DNA from: Thermobrachium celere DSM 8682
GTDB lineage: Bacteria > Bacillota > Clostridia > Clostridiales > Caloramatoraceae
Reading direction: 5' to 3'
DNA length: 64,000 nt
Assembly: GCF_000430995.1 (NCBI RefSeq)
Contig: NZ_HF952018.1
Coordinates: 1,368,449 to 1,432,448, forward strand
Position numbers and translations under genes: made by a program. Of the stretch, positions 2,740 through 62,522 are shown piece after piece (the first letter of the stretch is position 1; each line of letters opens with the position of its first letter). The notes under the pieces were generated by a model. The model was given only the letters and a program-made list of their open reading frames with translations, was not told the origin of the DNA and did no database searches.

Positions 2740-2990
2740 AAACACCTCCAAATATAAAAGTCCTTCGCACACTAAGGGCGAAGGACCGCGGTACCACCTT
2801 AATTCTGCACTTTGCAGCACTCATTTAGATAACGGTTACCCGTTTCATCCTACTTTACTTCAGATGAAAGGCTCCGAAGCTACCTTCGATAGCGCTTAAC
2901 CTAAGAAGACCTCTCAGCCTATGGGCCTTCCTCTCTTTTAGGTGACACTACCTACTCCTCTTCTTCACAGCCTGTTAGATATTAACTTTT
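2740..2990 (-). promoter_or_regulatory. T-box leader of the valS transcript
   Basis: On the minus strand the canonical T-box antiterminator sequence AAGGTGGTACCGCG is at 2787-2800. It is followed by a terminator hairpin (arms 2760-2768 and 2778-2786, 9 bp) and a U tract. The upstream part holds Stem I-like structure. T-boxes read the charging state of the cognate tRNA and antiterminate when it is uncharged. The gene downstream makes tRNA-Val the expected ligand; I could not assign the specifier triplet with confidence. Confidence 0.93.
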
Positions 2991-19106: not shown

Positions 19107-19162
19107 TTTTTATTACTCCTTTATATGATAAAATTGATATATATGGATTTGGAGGTGTGAGT

Positions 19163-19462
19163 ATGAAATTTAATATAAACCAAAGGGCTTTAGATTATAT
19201 TATCTCAAAGGGTGGCAACTTAATAATAACTGTTGTAAAATCCTCCTGCGGATGAGCAGGTAGTGTAAAAAGTCTCTGGATAGAGGCTGTAAAATATGTA
19301 GATAATATTGAAAACTACTATTATTATGAGCAGGATAAAATAAAAATATATATCCATAAAAGTCTTTTACTTGATAATGAGATAACTATTGAACTAAAAG
19401 CAAAAATCCCCCTAATTGGACCTATCTTTAATGTTAAAGGTGTAAAAATAAATTCCATATAG
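19163..19462 (+). CDS. CC/Se-motif selenoprotein (in-frame UGA = selenocysteine)
   Basis: 99 aa if the TGA at 19253-19255 (codon 31) is selenocysteine; the frame stays open before and after it to the TAG at 19460. The site reads SSCGUAG, the hallmark of the small CC/Se-motif (HesB-like) family, whose other members carry Cys there. GGAGG lies 7 nt before the ATG. A 7-bp stem with loop GGAU starts 15 nt after the UGA, matching bacterial SECIS geometry. Function is unknown; a redox or metal-binding role fits the C-x-U pair. Confidence 0.88.
19253..19288 (+). promoter_or_regulatory. Bacterial SECIS element of the CC/Se selenoprotein
   Basis: UGA at 19253-19255; stem AGUCUCU/AGAGGCU (19271-19277 and 19282-19288, one G-U pair) with loop GGAU (19278-19281). 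The loop GG is about 23 nt after the UGA, in the usual window for SelB recognition. Confidence 0.75.
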
Positions 19463-19966: not shown

Positions 19967-20887
19967 CTATTCTATAACTATTATATCATCGCCTACTCTA
20001 ACCTTTCCACCCTTTAACACCTTAACAAATATTCCCTCTCTTGGCATTACACAGTCTCCAACAAGCCTTTTAATTTCACATCCACCATGGCACTCTTTAC
20101 CTATTTGAGTTACTTCAACCTCTGCCTCTCCAATTATCATTCTTGTACCTATCTTTAAATTTGGAAGGTCTATTCCTTGAGTAGTTATATTTTCTGCAAA
20201 CTTTCCATAGTCTAAATGGTCAAGCCCCATCTTCTTCATTTTATCAATGCTCTCTTCTGCAAGAAGGCTAACCTGTCTGTGCCACTTTCCTGCATGAGCA
20301 TCTCCCTTTACTCCAAAATCCTCAACTAATTCTATCTCATTTACTGGGTTTTTAACAACTCCCTTTTTTTCACTTATATTAACTGATACTACCTTTCCCA
20401 TCTTTAAATCACTCCTTACAAAATGTCCAGATTTTCCACCTTTTTTCTCAATAAGCTTAATATCCCCTATTATCATCTCTTTATCTATCGCCTTACACAT
20501 ATCATATATAGTTAATGCAGCTGTTGATACTGCTGTTAAAGCCTCCATCTCAACTCCTGTTTTTCCAACTGTCTTTGCCTTTGCTGTAATATATACCCTT
20601 GAGTTTTCTTCGTCTATTTGAAACTCAATATCACATCCACTTAAAAATATGTTGTGACACATAGGGATTATATCACTTGTCTTTTTTGCTCCCATAATTC
20701 CAGCAACCTGTGCAACTGCTAAAACATCTCCCTTTTTTATAGCCCCCTGCTTTATGGCCTCAATGGTTTCTTTTTTCATCTCAATATATCCTCTTGCTAC
20801 TGCAACCCTTTTTGTATCATCCTTTTCCCCAACATCAACCATTCTTGCTCTTCCTTCTTCGTTAAAGTGAGTTAAACTCATAATCAA
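19967..20887 (-). CDS. moaC: MoaC-MOSC fusion, molybdopterin precursor synthesis
   Basis: 306 aa with two domains. Residues 1-160 are MoaC ([50 protein letters not shown]), which finishes cyclic pyranopterin monophosphate with MoaA. Residues 163-306 are a MOSC domain with conserved Cys ([20 protein letters not shown]), a fold that handles sulfur or delivers cofactor. The ATG overlaps the moaA stop by 4 nt. This fusion is known from Clostridia. Confidence 0.94.
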
Positions 20888-21828
20888 CCTCCTGTTCTAA
20901 CCATATCTCTACTACTTTTACTTATTTTATCCTCTAAAAGAGTATGCCTTTCGTACTTATTATAAATGCCTGCTCTTAAAACTTCTGTTAGCTTGTCTAC
21001 GTCATCAATATATGGTCTTAGATCATATTCATCTGGATTATGAAGGCAGGTTTTTAATTTTCCATCTGATGTTATTCTAACTCTATTGCACCTACTACAG
21101 AAGCTATGGGACATTGTGGTGATAAATCCCACCCTACCAACATGTCCATTTAACCTGTAGACTTCTGATGGTCCACCACCATTATTTTCTATCTTTACAA
21201 TATTTGCACCATCTAAATACTTAAGAATATCATCCTTTGTTACTCCTTTAAATTTAGTTGCTTCACCAATTGGCATAAGCTCAATAAATCTTACATCTAT
21301 ATTTAAATGTTTCGTAATATTAATGAAATCAATTATTTCTTCATCATTTATCCCCTTTATAGGAATCATATTTACCTTTACAACAAGTCCAAGCTCAATC
21401 GACTTATTTAATCCATCCAATACCTTTTTTAAGTCTCCACCAGTCAGCTTTTTAAATCTATCTTCCTTTAGGGTATCCAGGCTTATATTAACCCTCTTTA
21501 AGCCATATTTAATCAAATCTTGAATTTTTTCTCCCAATAATATTCCATTAGTAGTAATCCCAATATCATCTATTCCCTCAACTTGATTTATTGTCTTTAT
21601 TATCTCAATTATATCCTTTCTTATTAAAGGTTCTCCCCCTGTTACTCTTATCCTCTTTACACCTAATCGTGATAATGCAGTTACAATATTTTTAATCTCA
21701 TCTACAGTTAAAAAATTATAGTGCTTTGCAATATATCCATTTGGCATACAGTATAAGCATCTTAAATTACAAGCGTCAGTAATTGATATTCTTGCATAAT
21801 TTATTTCTCTATTAAACTTATCTAACAT
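20884..21828 (-). CDS. moaA: GTP 3',8-cyclase MoaA (radical SAM)
   Basis: 314 aa. N-terminal radical SAM site C-x3-C-x2-C ([10 protein letters not shown]) and C-terminal second cluster (CSRCNRVR then C at KLKTCLHNP). The C-terminal GG needed for activity is present (RTGG). It makes the first pterin intermediate from GTP. It overlaps moaC-MOSC by 4 nt and follows moeA2 by 12 nt. Confidence 0.97.
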
Positions 21829-21840
21829 GTCACCACACCT

Positions 21841-23709
21841 TTAATATATTATATCTAAGCTATTTATCTCATAGCCTCCAATTTCATAAAGCCTATTTTT
21901 AAACTCCTCTGATTTAACAACCTCTAAGAAGCATTTAAATCTTTCATCATTTAGCATATCCCTTGATATTGCAATATCATATTCCTCAAAGCAAACAGGT
22001 ATAAAGTCAAGTCCCATAAACTGTGCTGCAGATAGTACCCCAAGTCCACAATCTGCACTACCTGATGCTACCTGTGCTGCTACATTTAAATGTGTAACTT
22101 CCTCTCTTTCATACCCATTAATATCCTTAGGATTTATTGAAAGCTTATTTAGATGATAATCAAGAAGCATTCTTGTACCAGAACCCTTTTGCCTATTTAC
22201 AAACCTTACTCGACTTAAATCTTCAAATCCCTTTATATTTAAAGGATTACCCTTTTTAACCATAAATCCCTGAACTCTTTTTATAAACTTAAGTAGAGCA
22301 AATTCTCCTAAGTATCTATTAAGATAGCTTGTATTATACTCTCCTTTTTCATCAAGAAGATGAACAGGTGCTATATGTGTCTCTCCCCTCTTTAATGCCA
22401 TAATTCCACCCATACTTCCAACATGGGTTGAATTTAGATTAAATCCCCTTTTATTCATCATATCAGATATTATATCAAGTACAACATCGTGGCTTCCTAT
22501 GCAAACAAGTGTACTATCTATATCCTTTATGTCCCTTAATAGCTTAACGCTTACCTTCTCTCCTGCCTCAAGTCCCTCTGTGTTTTTATCTATAACCAAA
22601 ACACCATCCGCTGTTGTTAAAGACATTGTAACCCCAGCACCTCTTCCTATAGGAGATGCAATTAGTTTGTCCTTTACCTTACCAAGCTTTACCCTTATAA
22701 ATTCATCATTTTTTAAAGAGGAATTTATCTTCTTTGTTAAAATAGCTTCAACCTCTCTTTTTTCTTCTGATTTTGCCTTTAAAACTGTATCAAAACCCAC
22801 TCTAACTATGTTCTCCATAACAAAGTAGGCAGAAACAGGATACCCTGGAACTCCAAATATAGCCTTTCCCTTTGCCATTGAAAAACTCGCAGGTCGTCCA
22901 GGCTTTATAGAAACTCCATGGAATTTGAGTTCTCCAAGTGTACTTAATATATCCTCTGCAAAATCTCCTCTTCCCTTTGCTGAACCTGCATTTACAATTA
23001 CAATATGGCATTCATCAAGGGCCCTTTGTGTTGTCTCCTTTATCTTTTCAAAATCGTCCTTTACTATATCATATCTTATGGGCTCTCCACCCCATTCTCT
23101 TACTAATGCTGCAAAGGTCCAAGAGTTAAAATCTATAAGTTCTCCTATTTTAGGTGTAACTCCAACATCTACAAGTTCATCTCCCGTTGGTATAATTCCT
23201 ACCCTTACCTTTTCAAAAACAGGAACCTCATTTACTCCTCCTGCAAGAAGAGATGCAATGTCTATTGCCCTAATTTTATGATTTGAGGGAAGTATCATTG
23301 CACCCATTGGAATATCTTCTCCAACAGGCCTTATGTTTTGATAAGGATGTGCTGGTTTTCTAATGATTACACCCTCGTCGGTTGTTTGAATATCCTCAAC
23401 CATTATAACACAATCAAACCCCTCTGGTATCGCATCTCCAGTATCTACAACTTCATATTGTCCATGTTTTAATAGAATTGGTCTATTTATATCAGCATCT
23501 AGGGTATATATAAACTTTGTTGCTATTCCATCCATTGCAGAAGCAATAAAATGGGGTGAGGAAATTTTAGAAAATATAGGCTCAGCAGTAACTCTACCAA
23601 GAGACTCTCTTGTATCAATATATTCTATTTTAAGCTCTATATTACTACATTCTTTTTTTATGATTTCTCTTGCTTCACTTAAATCTATATTTTTAAGAAA
23701 AAGAGCCAT
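21841..23709 (-). CDS. moeA: MoeA-like molybdenum/tungsten insertase fused to a PBP-like domain
   Basis: 622 aa, much longer than a plain MoeA (about 400). Residues 1-400 are MoeA (FIASAMDGIA; PTGDELV; NAGSAKGRGDF; HGVSIKPGRPASF). Residues 405-622 form a periplasmic-binding-protein-like domain without signal peptide (STHVGSMGGIMALKRGE; RQKGSGTRMLLDYHL), probably an intracellular oxyanion or cofactor sensor. MoeA loads metal into the pterin dithiolene. Second of a moeA pair in one operon. Confidence 0.93.
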   Translation of the reverse strand: MALFLKNIDLSEAREIIKKECSNIELKIEYIDTRESLGRVTAEPIFSKISSPHFIASAMDGIATKFIYTLDADINRPILLKHGQYEVVDTGDAIPEGFDCVIMVEDIQTTDEGVIIRKPAHPYQNIRPVGEDIPMGAMILPSNHKIRAIDIASLLAGGVNEVPVFEKVRVGIIPTGDELVDVGVTPKIGELIDFNSWTFAALVREWGGEPIRYDIVKDDFEKIKETTQRALDECHIVIVNAGSAKGRGDFAEDILSTLGELKFHGVSIKPGRPASFSMAKGKAIFGVPGYPVSAYFVMENIVRVGFDTVLKAKSEEKREVEAILTKKINSSLKNDEFIRVKLGKVKDKLIASPIGRGAGVTMSLTTADGVLVIDKNTEGLEAGEKVSVKLLRDIKDIDSTLVCIGSHDVVLDIISDMMNKRGFNLNSTHVGSMGGIMALKRGETHIAPVHLLDEKGEYNTSYLNRYLGEFALLKFIKRVQGFMVKKGNPLNIKGFEDLSRVRFVNRQKGSGTRMLLDYHLNKLSINPKDINGYEREEVTHLNVAAQVASGSADCGLGVLSAAQFMGLDFIPVCFEEYDIAISRDMLNDERFKCFLEVVKSEEFKNRLYEIGGYEINSLDIIY

Positions 23710-23713
23710 ACTA

Positions 23714-24901
23714 TCACCTCATAACAATAACTTCTTGTTCCTTCATAACTCCCTCAAGGTCACGCTCTATCTTTATAAAACCATCACACTTTGCCATAAC
23801 ACTAATAGCTGATGACTTTGCATATATTGGATATGCATAACCTCCCTCAATCGTAACAGGTAGATATTCCTCTCTTCCTTTAGCCTTGTGATAATTTTCA
23901 CCCATCTTTAAAATTAAAGAATTATCAATTTTTATTCTTCCAAGCATCCTATCTACTAATTCTGACATTATAAATCTATAAACAACAGCACAGGATAAAG
24001 GATGACCTGGCAACCCTACTATGAATTTTTCCCCCACCTTTGCCATTAAAGTTGGTTTTCCTGGCTTTATCGCAATACCGTGAAATAAAACTTCTCCAAG
24101 CCTTTCCATTATATTTATAGTAAAATCCCTATTTCCAGCAGAACTTCCACCTGATATAAATACTATATCAGATTCCTCAAGAGACTCCTTTACTAATGTA
24201 AAAAGTTCTTCTTCATTATCCTTAGAAATTCCCTTATATTTTGCATCACAACCATCCTTAATAAGTGCCGAAGTCAAATAGTAGCCATTTATATCTCTTA
24301 CCTTTGGAATCTCCCTCTTTTCATATGGAGAAATAAGTTCATCTCCTGTTGAAATTACAGTTGCCTTAACCTTTCTTTTTACATTAACATTAGTTATGCC
24401 AAGCCCTGCTAAAACTGCTATGTGTCTATCTTCTATTACAGTTCCTTTTTTTATTACTACCTCTCCTATCTTAACATCATCATCTTCAAAGACAACATTT
24501 TCCCATCTACTTGTTGGCTTATTTATTAATACTTCATCCCCTAATTCTTCACAATCCTCAATCATTGCAACTGCATCTGCCCCATCTGGAAGCATTGCAC
24601 CTGTTGGTATATAAATACATTCACCTTCATTTAATGAATATTTTGGTCTTTCACCAATTACAATAGAACCCTTATTCTTTAAAATAGCAGGCATTGATTC
24701 GCTACATAGATATGTATCATTTGAAATTAGTGCATATCCATCTACCGATGACCTTTTAAATCCTGGTAAATTTTCACAAGCTACAACATCCTCTGCTAAA
24801 ACTCTGCCAAGTGCACTATTTATATCAACGTTTTCATTATCTACTTCTTTTGCATTTTCAAATATGTTTAAAACCTCTGAAACATTTAAGACCTTAAGCA
24901 T
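23714..24901 (-). CDS. moeA: Molybdopterin molybdenumtransferase MoeA
   Basis: 395 aa from ATG 24901, chosen because GAAGGAGG lies 8 nt upstream; the longer reading adds 12 unlike residues. Conserved MoeA stretches: FKRSSVDGYALIS, PTGAMLPDGADAVAMIED, STGDELI, SGGSSAGNRDFT, GIAIKPGKPT, VGLPGHPLSCAV. It catalyses metal insertion. First gene of the pterin operon, divergent from mog. Confidence 0.95.
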   Translation of the reverse strand: MLKVLNVSEVLNIFENAKEVDNENVDINSALGRVLAEDVVACENLPGFKRSSVDGYALISNDTYLCSESMPAILKNKGSIVIGERPKYSLNEGECIYIPTGAMLPDGADAVAMIEDCEELGDEVLINKPTSRWENVVFEDDDVKIGEVVIKKGTVIEDRHIAVLAGLGITNVNVKRKVKATVISTGDELISPYEKREIPKVRDINGYYLTSALIKDGCDAKYKGISKDNEEELFTLVKESLEESDIVFISGGSSAGNRDFTINIMERLGEVLFHGIAIKPGKPTLMAKVGEKFIVGLPGHPLSCAVVYRFIMSELVDRMLGRIKIDNSLILKMGENYHKAKGREEYLPVTIEGGYAYPIYAKSSAISVMAKCDGFIKIERDLEGVMKEQEVIVMR

Positions 24902-25009
24902 ATAATATGCCTCCCTTCTATTTAATAATTTTAACACATATTACTTTAAATAGATACAAATTTGAAATATTGTGATAAAATAAACTATATATAAAAAGGA
25001 GGGTTCAAA

Positions 25010-57965: not shown

Positions 57966-58268
57966 TCAGCATGAACATCCACTTCTACCATATAGTTGCT
58001 CTACTACAAATCTCTTTCCAAAGAAAGAATTTCTGTAATCAATTACAAATCCCTTTGAATATCTTGATAGTTCCTTATCAAACAATACCTTAATTCCCTC
58101 AACCTCATAAACATTGTCTGTTTTCTTCTGCTCATCCAGAGCAAGACCATAGCTTGGGCCACCTCATCCAATGCCAGCTATAAATATTCTTACTCCTAAT
58201 GTTTGATCTTTTCCTTCTAACTTTTTCTTCAACTCTTCAGCAGCTGACTGAGTAATCTTTATTTCCAT
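57966..58268 (-). CDS. HesB/IscA-like selenoprotein (in-frame UGA = selenocysteine)
   Basis: 100 aa if the UGA at 58164-58166 (codon 35, context GIGUGG) is selenocysteine; the frame is open on both sides to a C-terminal CSC. HesB/IscA fold (ITQSAAEELKKKLEG; FIAGIG; GPSYGLALDE; IDYR), with the Sec at a conserved Cys position. The RBS GGAGGTG precedes the ATG. Its SECIS-like stem-loop sits 19 nt after the UGA. Cys homologues bind Fe-S or act in Fe-S delivery; the Sec version is probably redox active. Confidence 0.9.
58128..58166 (-). promoter_or_regulatory. Bacterial SECIS element of the HesB-like selenoprotein
   Basis: UGA at 58164-58166; stem UUGCUC/GAGCAG (58139-58144 and 58128-58133) with loop UGGAU, the GG about 27 nt after the UGA. 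The loop resembles that of the other selenoprotein gene in this window. Confidence 0.75.
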
Positions 58269-58453: not shown

Positions 58454-58954
58454 TTACCATTTATTATAATGAATCCTACTTGCATCAAATCTATCTACCT
58501 CATCTTTATATTCATCTGGATATCCTACTGCAACAATAGAAAATGGAATAATATTTGCAGGTAAATTAAACATCTTTATAAGCTCATTTACCCTTGTTTC
58601 ATTTGGATATACTCCTATCCACACAGTTCCTAAACCTAGGCTTACTGCTTGCAAGAGCATGTTTTGTGTAGCAGCTGATAAATCTTGAACCCAAAAGCCT
58701 TCATATTTTTCCTTTGTCAAGTCACCACAAACTAATATTCCAACAGGTGCTTCCTTCAACATTGCTGCATGAGGATGTGTATTTGCAATATTGTTTAATA
58801 TATTTCTATCGTCTATAACTATGTAATGCCAAGGCTGTTCATTTCCAGCTGATGGAGCTGCCATAGCTGCACGCAATAATTCGTCGATCTTTTCCTTTTC
58901 AACTGGCTTTGATTGATATTTTCTTATACTTCTTCTTTTAAAAATTTCTTGCAT
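58454..58954 (-). CDS. Nitroreductase-family flavoprotein
   Basis: 166 aa. Flavin/FMN contact segments RRSIRKYQSKPV, MAAPSAGNEQPWHYIV and LGLGTVWIGVYPN are typical of short clostridial nitroreductases. It reduces nitro or quinone compounds with NAD(P)H. Divergent from the [NiFe] hydrogenase gene. Confidence 0.92.
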   Translation of the reverse strand: MQEIFKRRSIRKYQSKPVEKEKIDELLRAAMAAPSAGNEQPWHYIVIDDRNILNNIANTHPHAAMLKEAPVGILVCGDLTKEKYEGFWVQDLSAATQNMLLQAVSLGLGTVWIGVYPNETRVNELIKMFNLPANIIPFSIVAVGYPDEYKDEVDRFDASRIHYNKW

Positions 58955-59074
58955 AGTATCACTCCTTCCTATAATTTATTTTTTCTCACAAGATTTTTAC
59001 TATTCGTCGAATACATAAAGTATATACTTCATAAAATCTATTATGTATTAGAAATTATTAGAAGGAGAAGGTAT

Positions 59075-59845
59075 ATGGAACTCATTTGGCTTGAAGCAAA
59101 TGGTTGTTCAGGAAATATCATATCTTTTTTAAACAGTCAAAACCCTTCATTTGGATTTTTAAAACAAAAAATAAATATAACCTTTAGTAATAGCGATATG
59201 TACCCATATGGGGAAGCAGCAATGGAAGATTTTTTTAAAACTGTTGAAAATGGAAATTATATTCTTGTTGTTGAAGGTGCAATTGCAACAAGAGAAAATG
59301 GAAAATATAACATAATTGGATACTACAATAATCAATATGTTACTGCACTAGAAGCCGTAAAAATAGCATCAGAAAACGCCAAATATATAATATCTGCTGG
59401 AACTTGTTCATGTTTTGGAGGTATATCTGCATCAGATCCCAACATATCCGAATCTAAAGCATTAAGCGAAGTCATCCCAAATAAAATGATAATAAAAATG
59501 CCTGGATGTCCTGTATCTGGTAATTGGATGGCATCCCTTCTTTTAAGTCTTTTAGAAAATAAGGCTATTGAACTTGATCCACTTGGAAGGCCTATATATC
59601 TATATGGTAACACTGTGCATGACTTTTGCGAGAGAAGAACTTTCTTTGAAAGAAATATATTTGCAAAAAAAGTTGGAGATATAGGATGCTATTTAAAAAT
59701 AGGTTGTGTTGGCCCTTCTACTAAAGCCCCCTGCCCATATACAAAATGGAATGGATATATTAAGTGGCCTATTGGAGTAAATTCACAATGCATAGGCTGT
59801 ACATCTAAAGACTTTCCAAATTACACACTTTTTAAGGAGGAATGA
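59075..59845 (+). CDS. [NiFe]-hydrogenase small subunit (cytosolic)
   Basis: 256 aa from ATG 59075 (AGAAGGAGAAGG upstream); the longer ORF has an unlikely leader and no RBS. No Tat signal, so it is cytosolic. Fe-S sites: proximal C11 then SAGTCSCFGG, MPGCPVSG; medial and distal HDFCERR, CYLKIGCVGPSTKAPC, CIGCTSKD. The second proximal ligand, usually Cys in a C-x2-C pair, is Asn14 (CSGN). First gene of a three-gene unit. Confidence 0.92.
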   Translation: MELIWLEANGCSGNIISFLNSQNPSFGFLKQKINITFSNSDMYPYGEAAMEDFFKTVENGNYILVVEGAIATRENGKYNIIGYYNNQYVTALEAVKIASENAKYIISAGTCSCFGGISASDPNISESKALSEVIPNKMIIKMPGCPVSGNWMASLLLSLLENKAIELDPLGRPIYLYGNTVHDFCERRTFFERNIFAKKVGDIGCYLKIGCVGPSTKAPCPYTKWNGYIKWPIGVNSQCIGCTSKDFPNYTLFKEE

Positions 59846-59851
59846 AATAAT

Positions 59852-61150
59852 ATGGAGATAATTTTAAGCCCTATAACTAGAATAAGTGGTTTTTTAACAA
59901 TAGTACTTGAAATTGATAATAATGTTGTCATAGATGCAAAATGTAAAGGAACCATGTTTCGTGGATTTGAAAAACTTCTAATCAACAGACATCCGCTTGA
60001 TGCTATTTATTTAACCCAAAGAATATGTGGCATATGTTCCTCAGCTCATAGTATAGCATCAAGCCGTGCATTAGAAGATTGTTCAAAGATTGATATTAGC
60101 TTCAATTCTAAACTAGTTAGAAATATAATTCATGGTTTTGATATACTTCAAAATCATATAAGACATTTTTATCTTTTTTCAGTTCCAGACTTTATAAATG
60201 TAGAAGGTGAAAAAATAAATAGCAAAGTTCCAAAGGAGTTAGAAAATAAAATAAATGAAAACTATATAAAATCCCTATATTATTCAACACTTGCACATCA
60301 GGGTTTAAGTATTTTTGGTGGTAAAGCCCCCCACAACCATGGAATTGTATTTGGAGGTGTAACTTCTAAACTAAATCTTTATGAATTTTCAAAGGCAGTT
60401 GAAATTTCAAAGGAACTACTTGAATTTACTAATATTATGATTGATGATTACCAGATAATTGAAAAGTATTACGATGAATATAATAAGTTAGGAGATACAG
60501 GAGGAAATTATATAAGCTTTGGTCTATTTGAAGATACACCTGAATTTACTATTTGTAAAAGCGGTGCTTTAATTAATAAAGAACTTTGCAATTTAGATTT
60601 AAATAATTTAAAAGAATATGAAGTTCAGGATGACATATCTTTTATAAATGCACCAAGGTATATAGACCTTCCTGTTGAGGTTGGACCACTTGCAAGGCAA
60701 TCCATAAGAAGTGGGTGGATTAAAAGTTCTACATTAAACAGAATAAAAGCTAGAGTCTATGAAGCTAAACTGATTGCTGAAAGGTTAAATGAAATGCTTA
60801 ACTTAGTCACAATAAATCAAAATGAAACAAAAACAGATTTTATAGATGGAATTGGAGTAGGTATAACAGATACAATACGTGGAGCATTATATCATAATGT
60901 TGAAATAAAGGATAAGAAAATTTATAAATATAACATAATAACACCATCAGCATTTAATCTCTCGCCAACATATAATAATGTTAAGGGCCCATTAGAAAAA
61001 GCATTAATAGGAACTTATATAGAAGACATAAATAATCCTATTGAAATAATTAGAATAGTTCATTCCTTTGATCCATGTGTATCCTGTGCGACTCATTTAG
61101 TAAGTAAAAATGGGGAATTTTTAAATGAAAACTATTTTATGCATAGGTAA
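59852..61150 (+). CDS. [NiFe]-hydrogenase large subunit (catalytic)
   Basis: 432 aa. Metal ligands: L1 R-I-C-G-I-C-S-S-A-H near 58-67 and L2 D-P-C-V-S-C-A-T-H (Cys409, Cys412, His415). A 17-residue tail after His415 would be cut off by the protease encoded next. Short for the class and without a leader peptide, so it partners the cytosolic small subunit 6 nt upstream. It contains a 26-nt overlap with the protease gene. Confidence 0.94.
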   Translation: MEIILSPITRISGFLTIVLEIDNNVVIDAKCKGTMFRGFEKLLINRHPLDAIYLTQRICGICSSAHSIASSRALEDCSKIDISFNSKLVRNIIHGFDILQNHIRHFYLFSVPDFINVEGEKINSKVPKELENKINENYIKSLYYSTLAHQGLSIFGGKAPHNHGIVFGGVTSKLNLYEFSKAVEISKELLEFTNIMIDDYQIIEKYYDEYNKLGDTGGNYISFGLFEDTPEFTICKSGALINKELCNLDLNNLKEYEVQDDISFINAPRYIDLPVEVGPLARQSIRSGWIKSSTLNRIKARVYEAKLIAERLNEMLNLVTINQNETKTDFIDGIGVGITDTIRGALYHNVEIKDKKIYKYNIITPSAFNLSPTYNNVKGPLEKALIGTYIEDINNPIEIIRIVHSFDPCVSCATHLVSKNGEFLNENYFMHR

Positions 61151-62234: not shown

Positions 62235-62361
62235 CCTCCTTTTTTACAGACGCAAAAAGGAGTTCTCTTCCGCTTCCCTTCGCTGGCATTACCCAGTTCA
62301 GGTTCTAAGGGTCGAAGGCTTGTTTGCCTTCCTCTCAGCCAAAGGCTCCCCTAGCGTCTGC
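62235..62361 (-). promoter_or_regulatory. TPP riboswitch in front of thiT
   Basis: Minus-strand aptamer with the consensus blocks GGCTGAGAGG, ACCCTT, GAACCTGA and GGGTAATGCCAGCGAAGGGA. P1 pairs CGCU (62353-62356) with AGCG (62271-62274). Downstream a hairpin CTCCTTTTT/AAAAAGGAG (62254-62262 and 62236-62244) covers the RBS and is followed by seven Us. Its loop GCGTCTGT is complementary to the first bases of the leader, which also overlap P1. Confidence 0.96.
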
Positions 62362-62522
62362 TTTTATTTATTTTACATTAATAATTATACTATTGTGAGT
62401 TATAAAATACAACTAAAAATTAGCAAAATAAAAAAATAAATTCATCTTTCCTTTATATCTATTTCTTGTATAGGTGTTGATTTATTTTTAAAAAAGTTTT
62501 ATAATATATTTGACAATTACAT

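What the first reader, a model, noticed from the sequence alone, without database searches (positions are those of the whole stretch)
19163..19462. UGA-coded CC/Se-motif selenoprotein
A 100-codon frame with one in-frame UGA in SSCGUAG context, a strong RBS, a stem-loop with GG in its loop 15 nt after the UGA, and a terminator at the proper stop. Any standard annotation would truncate this gene. Family function is not known, and the C-x-U pair suggests redox or metal chemistry. Seen: frame, context, hairpin. Established: such motifs mark the CC/Se (HesB-like) family. Inferred: Sec insertion.
Basis: partly seen in the sequence, partly recalled or inferred. Interest (0 to 1): 0.75.

Follow-up and report, generated by a model that had tools for sequence, protein, structure and literature searches.

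The report
CC/Se-family selenoprotein with IscA fold
A small bacterial gene uses an internal UGA codon to insert selenocysteine into a protein shaped like an iron-sulphur-cluster carrier; the gene and its recoding look real, but the protein family was already catalogued.

Summary
Window 19163-19462 (+) is a 99-residue gene with one in-frame UGA at codon 31 (SSCGUAG). It belongs to NCBIfam NF041239, the 'CC/Se motif family (seleno)protein' (45 bits, cut-off 40). The host genome, genus Caloramator by its relatives, has selA, selB, selD and a tRNA-Sec in one cluster. Of 48 homologues, 27 have UGA at this site, 20 have Cys and one is a fragment. UGA forms go with selB (28 of 29 genomes, against 8 of 18 Cys-only genomes). 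Sequence after the UGA is under purifying selection. A SECIS-type hairpin follows the UGA in most UGA forms and is weak or absent in Cys forms (p about 1e-6). The predicted structure (pLDDT 93.7) matches only IscA/SufA/HesB folds; Sec31 falls on IscA Cys35, and IscA's C-terminal Cys-Gly-Cys is missing. Most likely Sec31 and Cys29 form a selenolate-thiolate site for soft-metal or redox chemistry; that is inferred. The family is in a 2026 inventory, so this is a new member, in an unusual C-x-U subfamily. In passing: a second HesB-like selenoprotein lies at 57966-58268 (-), and other Clostridia carry relatives with two adjacent UGA codons (Sec-Sec).

The parts
19151..19156 (+). Shine-Dalgarno GGAGGT, 6 nt before the ATG
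   Evidence: GGAGGTG is kept upstream of all five Caloramator copies
19163..19462 (+). CC/Se motif family selenoprotein gene, 99 aa, ATG to TAG
19247..19249 (+). Cys29 codon (TGC), partner of Sec31 in C-x-U
19253..19255 (+). UGA codon 31, read as selenocysteine
19271..19288 (+). bSECIS-type hairpin: 7-bp stem, loop GGAU at 19278-19281, 22 nt between UGA and loop
19453..19487 (+). rho-independent terminator whose stem includes the TAG stop

Best explanation
This is a stand-alone gene for a CC/Se-motif (NF041239) selenoprotein. A SelB-type hairpin just after UGA-31 directs selenocysteine insertion by the genome's own SelA/SelB/SelC/SelD. The product has the HesB/A-type-carrier (IscA/SufA) beta fold. 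It keeps only the first metal-binding position of that fold (IscA Cys35), here Sec31 with Cys29 two residues before it, and lacks the C-terminal Cys-Gly-Cys, so it cannot be a canonical three-cysteine Fe-S carrier. The best-supported mechanism is a surface selenolate-thiolate pair that either binds or hands on a soft metal (iron, a small Fe-S cluster, or a metal such as Cu/Hg) or cycles between selenol/thiol and selenenylsulphide. I favour metal ligation over pure redox at about 55:45. Shown by computation: gene, recoding signals, machinery, family, fold. Inferred: Sec insertion in the cell and the chemistry.
For: Family hit 45.0 bits over a cut-off of 40. tRNA-Sec 71.4 bits, anticodon tca; selB 385 bits, selA 650 bits, selD 382 bits and itself holding an in-frame UGA, all at C32:965877-970375. 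Of 48 distinct homologues, 27 have UGA at the motif, 20 Cys and 1 is a fragment. UGA-form genomes have SelB over the cut-off in 28 of 29 (the exception, G004, is 74% complete and has a SelB fragment), against 8 of 18 Cys-only genomes (Fisher p 7e-5). After the UGA, dN is 0.07-0.09 against dS 0.35-1.1 among the well-separated genus pairs. Hairpin energy median -6.8 in UGA forms against 0 in Cys forms, p 9e-7, and synonymous-codon resampling seldom reproduces it (window 0.018). bSECIS criteria met. AF2 pLDDT 93.7; Foldseek hits with probability over 0.8 are all IscA/SufA/HesB-type, and all VIA hits belong to that fold. hhalign puts position 31 on the Sec of the window's HesB-like protein (E 1.7e-9) and on IscA Cys35 (E 3.6e-4).
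Against: No protein-level data. The window hairpin alone is ordinary in strength, and in a few UGA homologues (L040, L045, L049, L054, L043) the simple hairpin rule finds none or only a weak one. Gene neighbourhood gives no functional clue: the gene has its own terminator, and its neighbours (Nudix, peptide deformylase, moco genes) are housekeeping and on the other strand. Metal or redox role is not tested. The IscA match is remote (TM about 0.5, Z about 7).
Confidence: 0.93

Rival explanations
1. UGA is a true stop: the gene makes a 30-residue peptide, or it is a pseudogene broken by one nonsense mutation.
For: UGA is a stop in the standard code, and no protein data are at hand.
Against: Frame, UGA and purifying selection persist after the UGA in all genus members. 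Homologues in many other clostridial families carry UGA at the same residue or have Cys there. Terminator lies at the TAG, not near the UGA.
Confidence: 0.02
2. UGA is read as another residue (Trp by near-cognate readthrough, or Cys through a recoded tRNA), not as Sec.
For: The aligned residue in homologues is Cys, so Cys insertion would also make sense.
Against: A canonical tRNA-Sec and selA-selB-selD are present, a SECIS-type hairpin follows the UGA in most UGA forms, and UGA forms track selB. A Trp reading has no support from the aligned residues.
Confidence: 0.03
3. The protein is a canonical Fe-S cluster A-type carrier (IscA/ErpA equivalent).
For: Same fold, sub-threshold Fe-S_biosyn similarity, position 31 = IscA Cys35.
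Against: It has no C-terminal Cys-x-Cys and scores 14.6 bits against the Pfam cut-off of 26.3. The genome has another protein with the full set (GU + CSC) at window 57966-58268.
Confidence: 0.1

Closest known systems
CC/Se motif family (seleno)protein, NCBIfam NF041239 (Moor_selen_rel); listed in PMC13188914 Table 1
   Same: Length, profile match over the cut-off, Sec/Cys at the motif, bSECIS hairpin, Clostridia
   Different: Sec is followed by Ala, not Cys; the second thiol sits two residues before (C-G-U). The 2026 table lists the motif as CxxU.
HesB-like selenoprotein (TIGR01911, NF038090; motif UxGP)
   Same: Sec aligns at the same place; close homologues even read CGUGGP; loop UGGAU is shared with the window's own HesB-like gene
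   Different: Lacks the C-terminal Cys-x-Cys, has the extra Cys29, and scores far below those families' cut-offs
IscA / SufA / ErpA A-type carriers (PF01521)
   Same: Fold and first ligand position
   Different: Only one of three conserved ligand positions is kept, and that one is Sec; 14.6 bits against a cut-off of 26.3

Membership tests
CC/Se motif family NF041239 | Whole-protein score above the curated cut-off (40 bits) | tested here: met
   45.0 bits, E 8.8e-12, UGA read as Cys; the genome scan, which scored the part aligned there, gave 38.2
CC/Se motif family NF041239 | Cys/Sec at the motif position across the family | tested here: met
   27 Sec forms, 20 Cys forms, 1 fragment among 48
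CC/Se motif family NF041239 | Vicinal CC/UC/CU pair | tested here: not met
   Window protein is C-G-U-A; the vicinal pair is replaced by C-x-U in its own clade, whose Cys members read CC or CDC(G/C). The name-giving pair is thus absent, but the curated profile accepts the protein.
Bacterial selenoprotein (SelB-dependent) | selA, selB, selC, selD in the genome | tested here: met
Bacterial selenoprotein (SelB-dependent) | bSECIS: loop 3-9 nt with G in its first two positions, stem 4-16 bp, 16-37 nt from the UGA, MFE <= -7.5 | tested here: met
   loop GGAU, 7 bp, 22 nt, -8.5 kcal/mol for the stretch; model quoted from PMC13188914
Bacterial selenoprotein (SelB-dependent) | Selenium in the protein | not testable with these tools
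   needs 75Se labelling or mass spectrometry
HesB/A-type carrier PF01521 | Pfam gathering score | tested here: not met
   14.6 against 26.3 bits
HesB/A-type carrier PF01521 | Three conserved Cys including the C-terminal Cys-x-Cys | tested here: not met
   no Cys after residue 31
HesB/A-type carrier PF01521 | Fold | tested here: met
   Foldseek E 4e-4 to SufA and 5e-4 to IscA; VIA Z 7.4, 85 residues aligned, rmsd 3.6 to 1r94

The most novel reading that the evidence does not exclude
The CC/Se family is a graded set of soft-metal or redox sites built on one A-type-carrier strand turn (CC, CDC, UC, CU, C-x-U and, in a separate branch, UU). Its far end is a natural selenoprotein with two adjacent selenocysteines, encoded UGA-UGA and served by one SECIS hairpin, a type not recorded in the 2026 inventory entry for this family. 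The window protein is the C-x-U step.
Probability: 0.5. Interest if true: 0.6.

Novelty: new member of a known kind. Interest (0 to 1): 0.4.

Why it matters
Standard gene callers would cut this protein to 30 residues or miss it. The work links the uncharacterised CC/Se family to the IscA/HesB fold with Sec on the Cys35 position, which gives it a first testable function (metal or cluster handling against redox). It also shows repeated Sec/Cys exchange within one small fold. The tandem UGA-UGA relatives, if real, would ask how one SECIS serves two neighbouring Sec codons.

Tried and rejected
PHROGs: no match. PDB sequence search with the protein and with the profile gave only chance hits. Weak matches to AB5-type toxin B subunits were dismissed: 18.4 bits against a cut-off of 40, low-complexity Tyr/Ile stretch, and no support from the fold search. 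Gene neighbourhood: conserved synteny inside the genus; peptide deformylase and an ECF-type transporter gene recur also beside Cys forms in related Clostridiaceae, which supports orthology but tells nothing about function. No open-access paper joining Caloramator and selenoproteins was found. The automatic DNA alignment of the hairpin region was not used for covariation counts: two rows were cut one or more codons off the UGA; the hairpin comparison was used instead. The search for papers on tandem Sec gave nothing specific.

Full report
OBSERVATION. The frame 19163-19462 (+) is as described: GGAGGT, 6 nt, ATG, 99 residues with one TGA at codon 31 (19253-19255), then TAG. The hairpin at 19271-19288 has a 7-bp stem (two of the pairs are closing A-U, one is U-G) and the loop GGAU, starting 15 nt after the UGA; its energy alone is not remarkable (z -1.42). 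A strong terminator spans the TAG (11 pairs, then CTTATTTTTT; z -5.35). A mechanical ORF list misses the gene: no ORF of 60 aa or more is listed in that frame.

FAMILY. Read with UGA as a residue, the protein matches NF041239, 'CC/Se motif family (seleno)protein', 45.0 bits over a cut-off of 40. Pfam Fe-S_biosyn is seen only below its cut-off (14.6 against 26.3), but 18 of 45 homologues give the same weak match, best E 1.5e-5. The family is listed in a 2026 review of prokaryotic selenoproteins (PMC13188914, Table 1: 'CC/Se motif family selenoprotein (hypothetical protein predicted in Moorella thermoacetica)', NF041239, CxxU, one Sec).

MACHINERY. The window's own genome has a tRNA-Sec (71.4 bits, anticodon tca), selB (385 bits), selA (650 bits) and selD (382 bits, with its own in-frame UGA), side by side at C32:965877-970375.

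HOMOLOGUES. Searches of relatives and of 391 genomes of the class gave 48 distinct proteins. At the window's position 31, or one residue on, 27 have UGA, 20 have Cys, and one is a fragment. Motifs seen: CGUAG and CGUGG (the window's bacterial family), UC, CU, CC, CDC(G/C). In L023 there is no upstream Cys (NVGUSG), so Cys29 is usual, not essential. UGA-form genomes carry SelB over its cut-off in 28 of 29, Cys-only genomes in 8 of 18 (Fisher p 7e-5; relatedness is not corrected for). A tree needs 7 to 8 changes of Sec/Cys state (the motif was not masked and deep forks are weak), and the window's clade, with Cys and Sec members, has 100% SH-aLRT support. Nearby genes (peptide deformylase, an ECF-type transporter) are shared between Sec and Cys forms in that clade, so these are orthologues.

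SELECTION AND SECIS. Among genus members, dN after the UGA is about 0.07-0.09 with dS 0.35-1.1 in the well-separated pairs. A hairpin rule taken from the bSECIS model was scored on all homologues: median -6.8 kcal/mol after UGA, 0 after the aligned Cys codon, Mann-Whitney p 9e-7; synonymous-codon resampling reached the window's value in 1.8% of draws. This removes the objection that the hairpin is only a by-product of the coding sequence. The published criteria (loop 3-9 nt, stem 4-16 bp, G in the first two loop positions, 16-37 nt spacing, MFE <= -7.5) are met.

STRUCTURE. AlphaFold2 on the 45-row alignment: pLDDT 93.7, pTM 0.83. The only clear Foldseek hits are SufA, IscA and other HesB-type proteins (E 4e-4 and below significance after them); VIA gives Z 7.4 for IscA 1r94 over 85 residues at 3.6 A, a middling Z, but no unrelated fold competes. 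Profile alignment puts Sec31 on Cys35 of E. coli IscA (sequence fetched) and on the Sec of a second HesB-like selenoprotein in this same window. No Cys follows residue 31, so the C-terminal Cys-Gly-Cys of IscA is lacking.

MECHANISM. Shown: gene, machinery, SECIS-type hairpin, constraint, family, fold. Inferred: Sec insertion, and a selenolate-thiolate site (Cys29, Sec31) at the first A-type-carrier ligand position that binds or passes a soft metal or cycles through a selenenylsulphide. The replacement of C-x-U by C-D-C or CC in relatives fits either.

VERDICT. Confirmed and well supported; a new member of a known family. The C-x-U form and the HesB fold assignment add modest novelty. The most interesting by-product is outside the window: relatives with adjacent UGA-UGA codons in at least nine clostridial genomes, each with a SECIS-type hairpin about 20-21 nt after the second UGA where checked, forming one branch of the tree (92% SH-aLRT, with a long-branch warning).

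Noticed in passing
window 57966-58268, minus strand: A second selenoprotein gene: HesB/IscA-like, 100 aa, MEIKITQ...FIAGIGUGGPSYGL...GRSGCSC, UGA at 58166-58164, with a downstream hairpin whose loop is UGGAU, as in the finding. TIGR00049 63.1 bits over the cut-off of 58.8; below the cut-offs of NF038090 and TIGR01911.
   Followed up: partly
L066-L074 (nine loci in eight genomes) and L081: Distant CC/Se relatives with two adjacent UGA codons (GUU[MSV] or TUUF) at the motif, conserved across genera; in L066-L074 a SECIS-type hairpin (-5.6 to -10.5 kcal/mol) follows the second UGA by 20-21 nt. Looks like a tandem Sec-Sec protein.
   Followed up: partly
L069, downstream of the UU gene: The UU gene is followed at once by a small Cys-rich thioredoxin-like protein (SSGCRSCGSGCCGG...), weakly like the 'DF family (seleno)protein' NF049942 (48.6 bits against a cut-off of 70).
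   Followed up: partly
L032, L029-L033: Cys forms in related Clostridium-type genomes read C-D-C-C or C-D-C-G, the sulphur counterpart of C-G-U.
   Followed up: partly
G000:C32:969464-970375: selD of this genome is itself a selenoprotein (in-frame UGA, KAAGUAAK), with hairpin GGUCCUGAGACC.
   Followed up: partly
window 19967-24937, minus strand: Molybdenum-cofactor cluster: moaC with a C-terminal MOSC-like part, moaA and two moeA-like genes, next to peptide deformylase (names from sequence reading).
   Followed up: no
window 2771-2977 (-) and 62258-62362 (-): T-box leader and TPP riboswitch above Rfam gathering scores.
   Followed up: no
window 58913-61150, plus strand: Two genes that read like NiFe-hydrogenase small and large subunits, close to the HesB-like selenoprotein but on the other strand (by eye only).
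   Followed up: no
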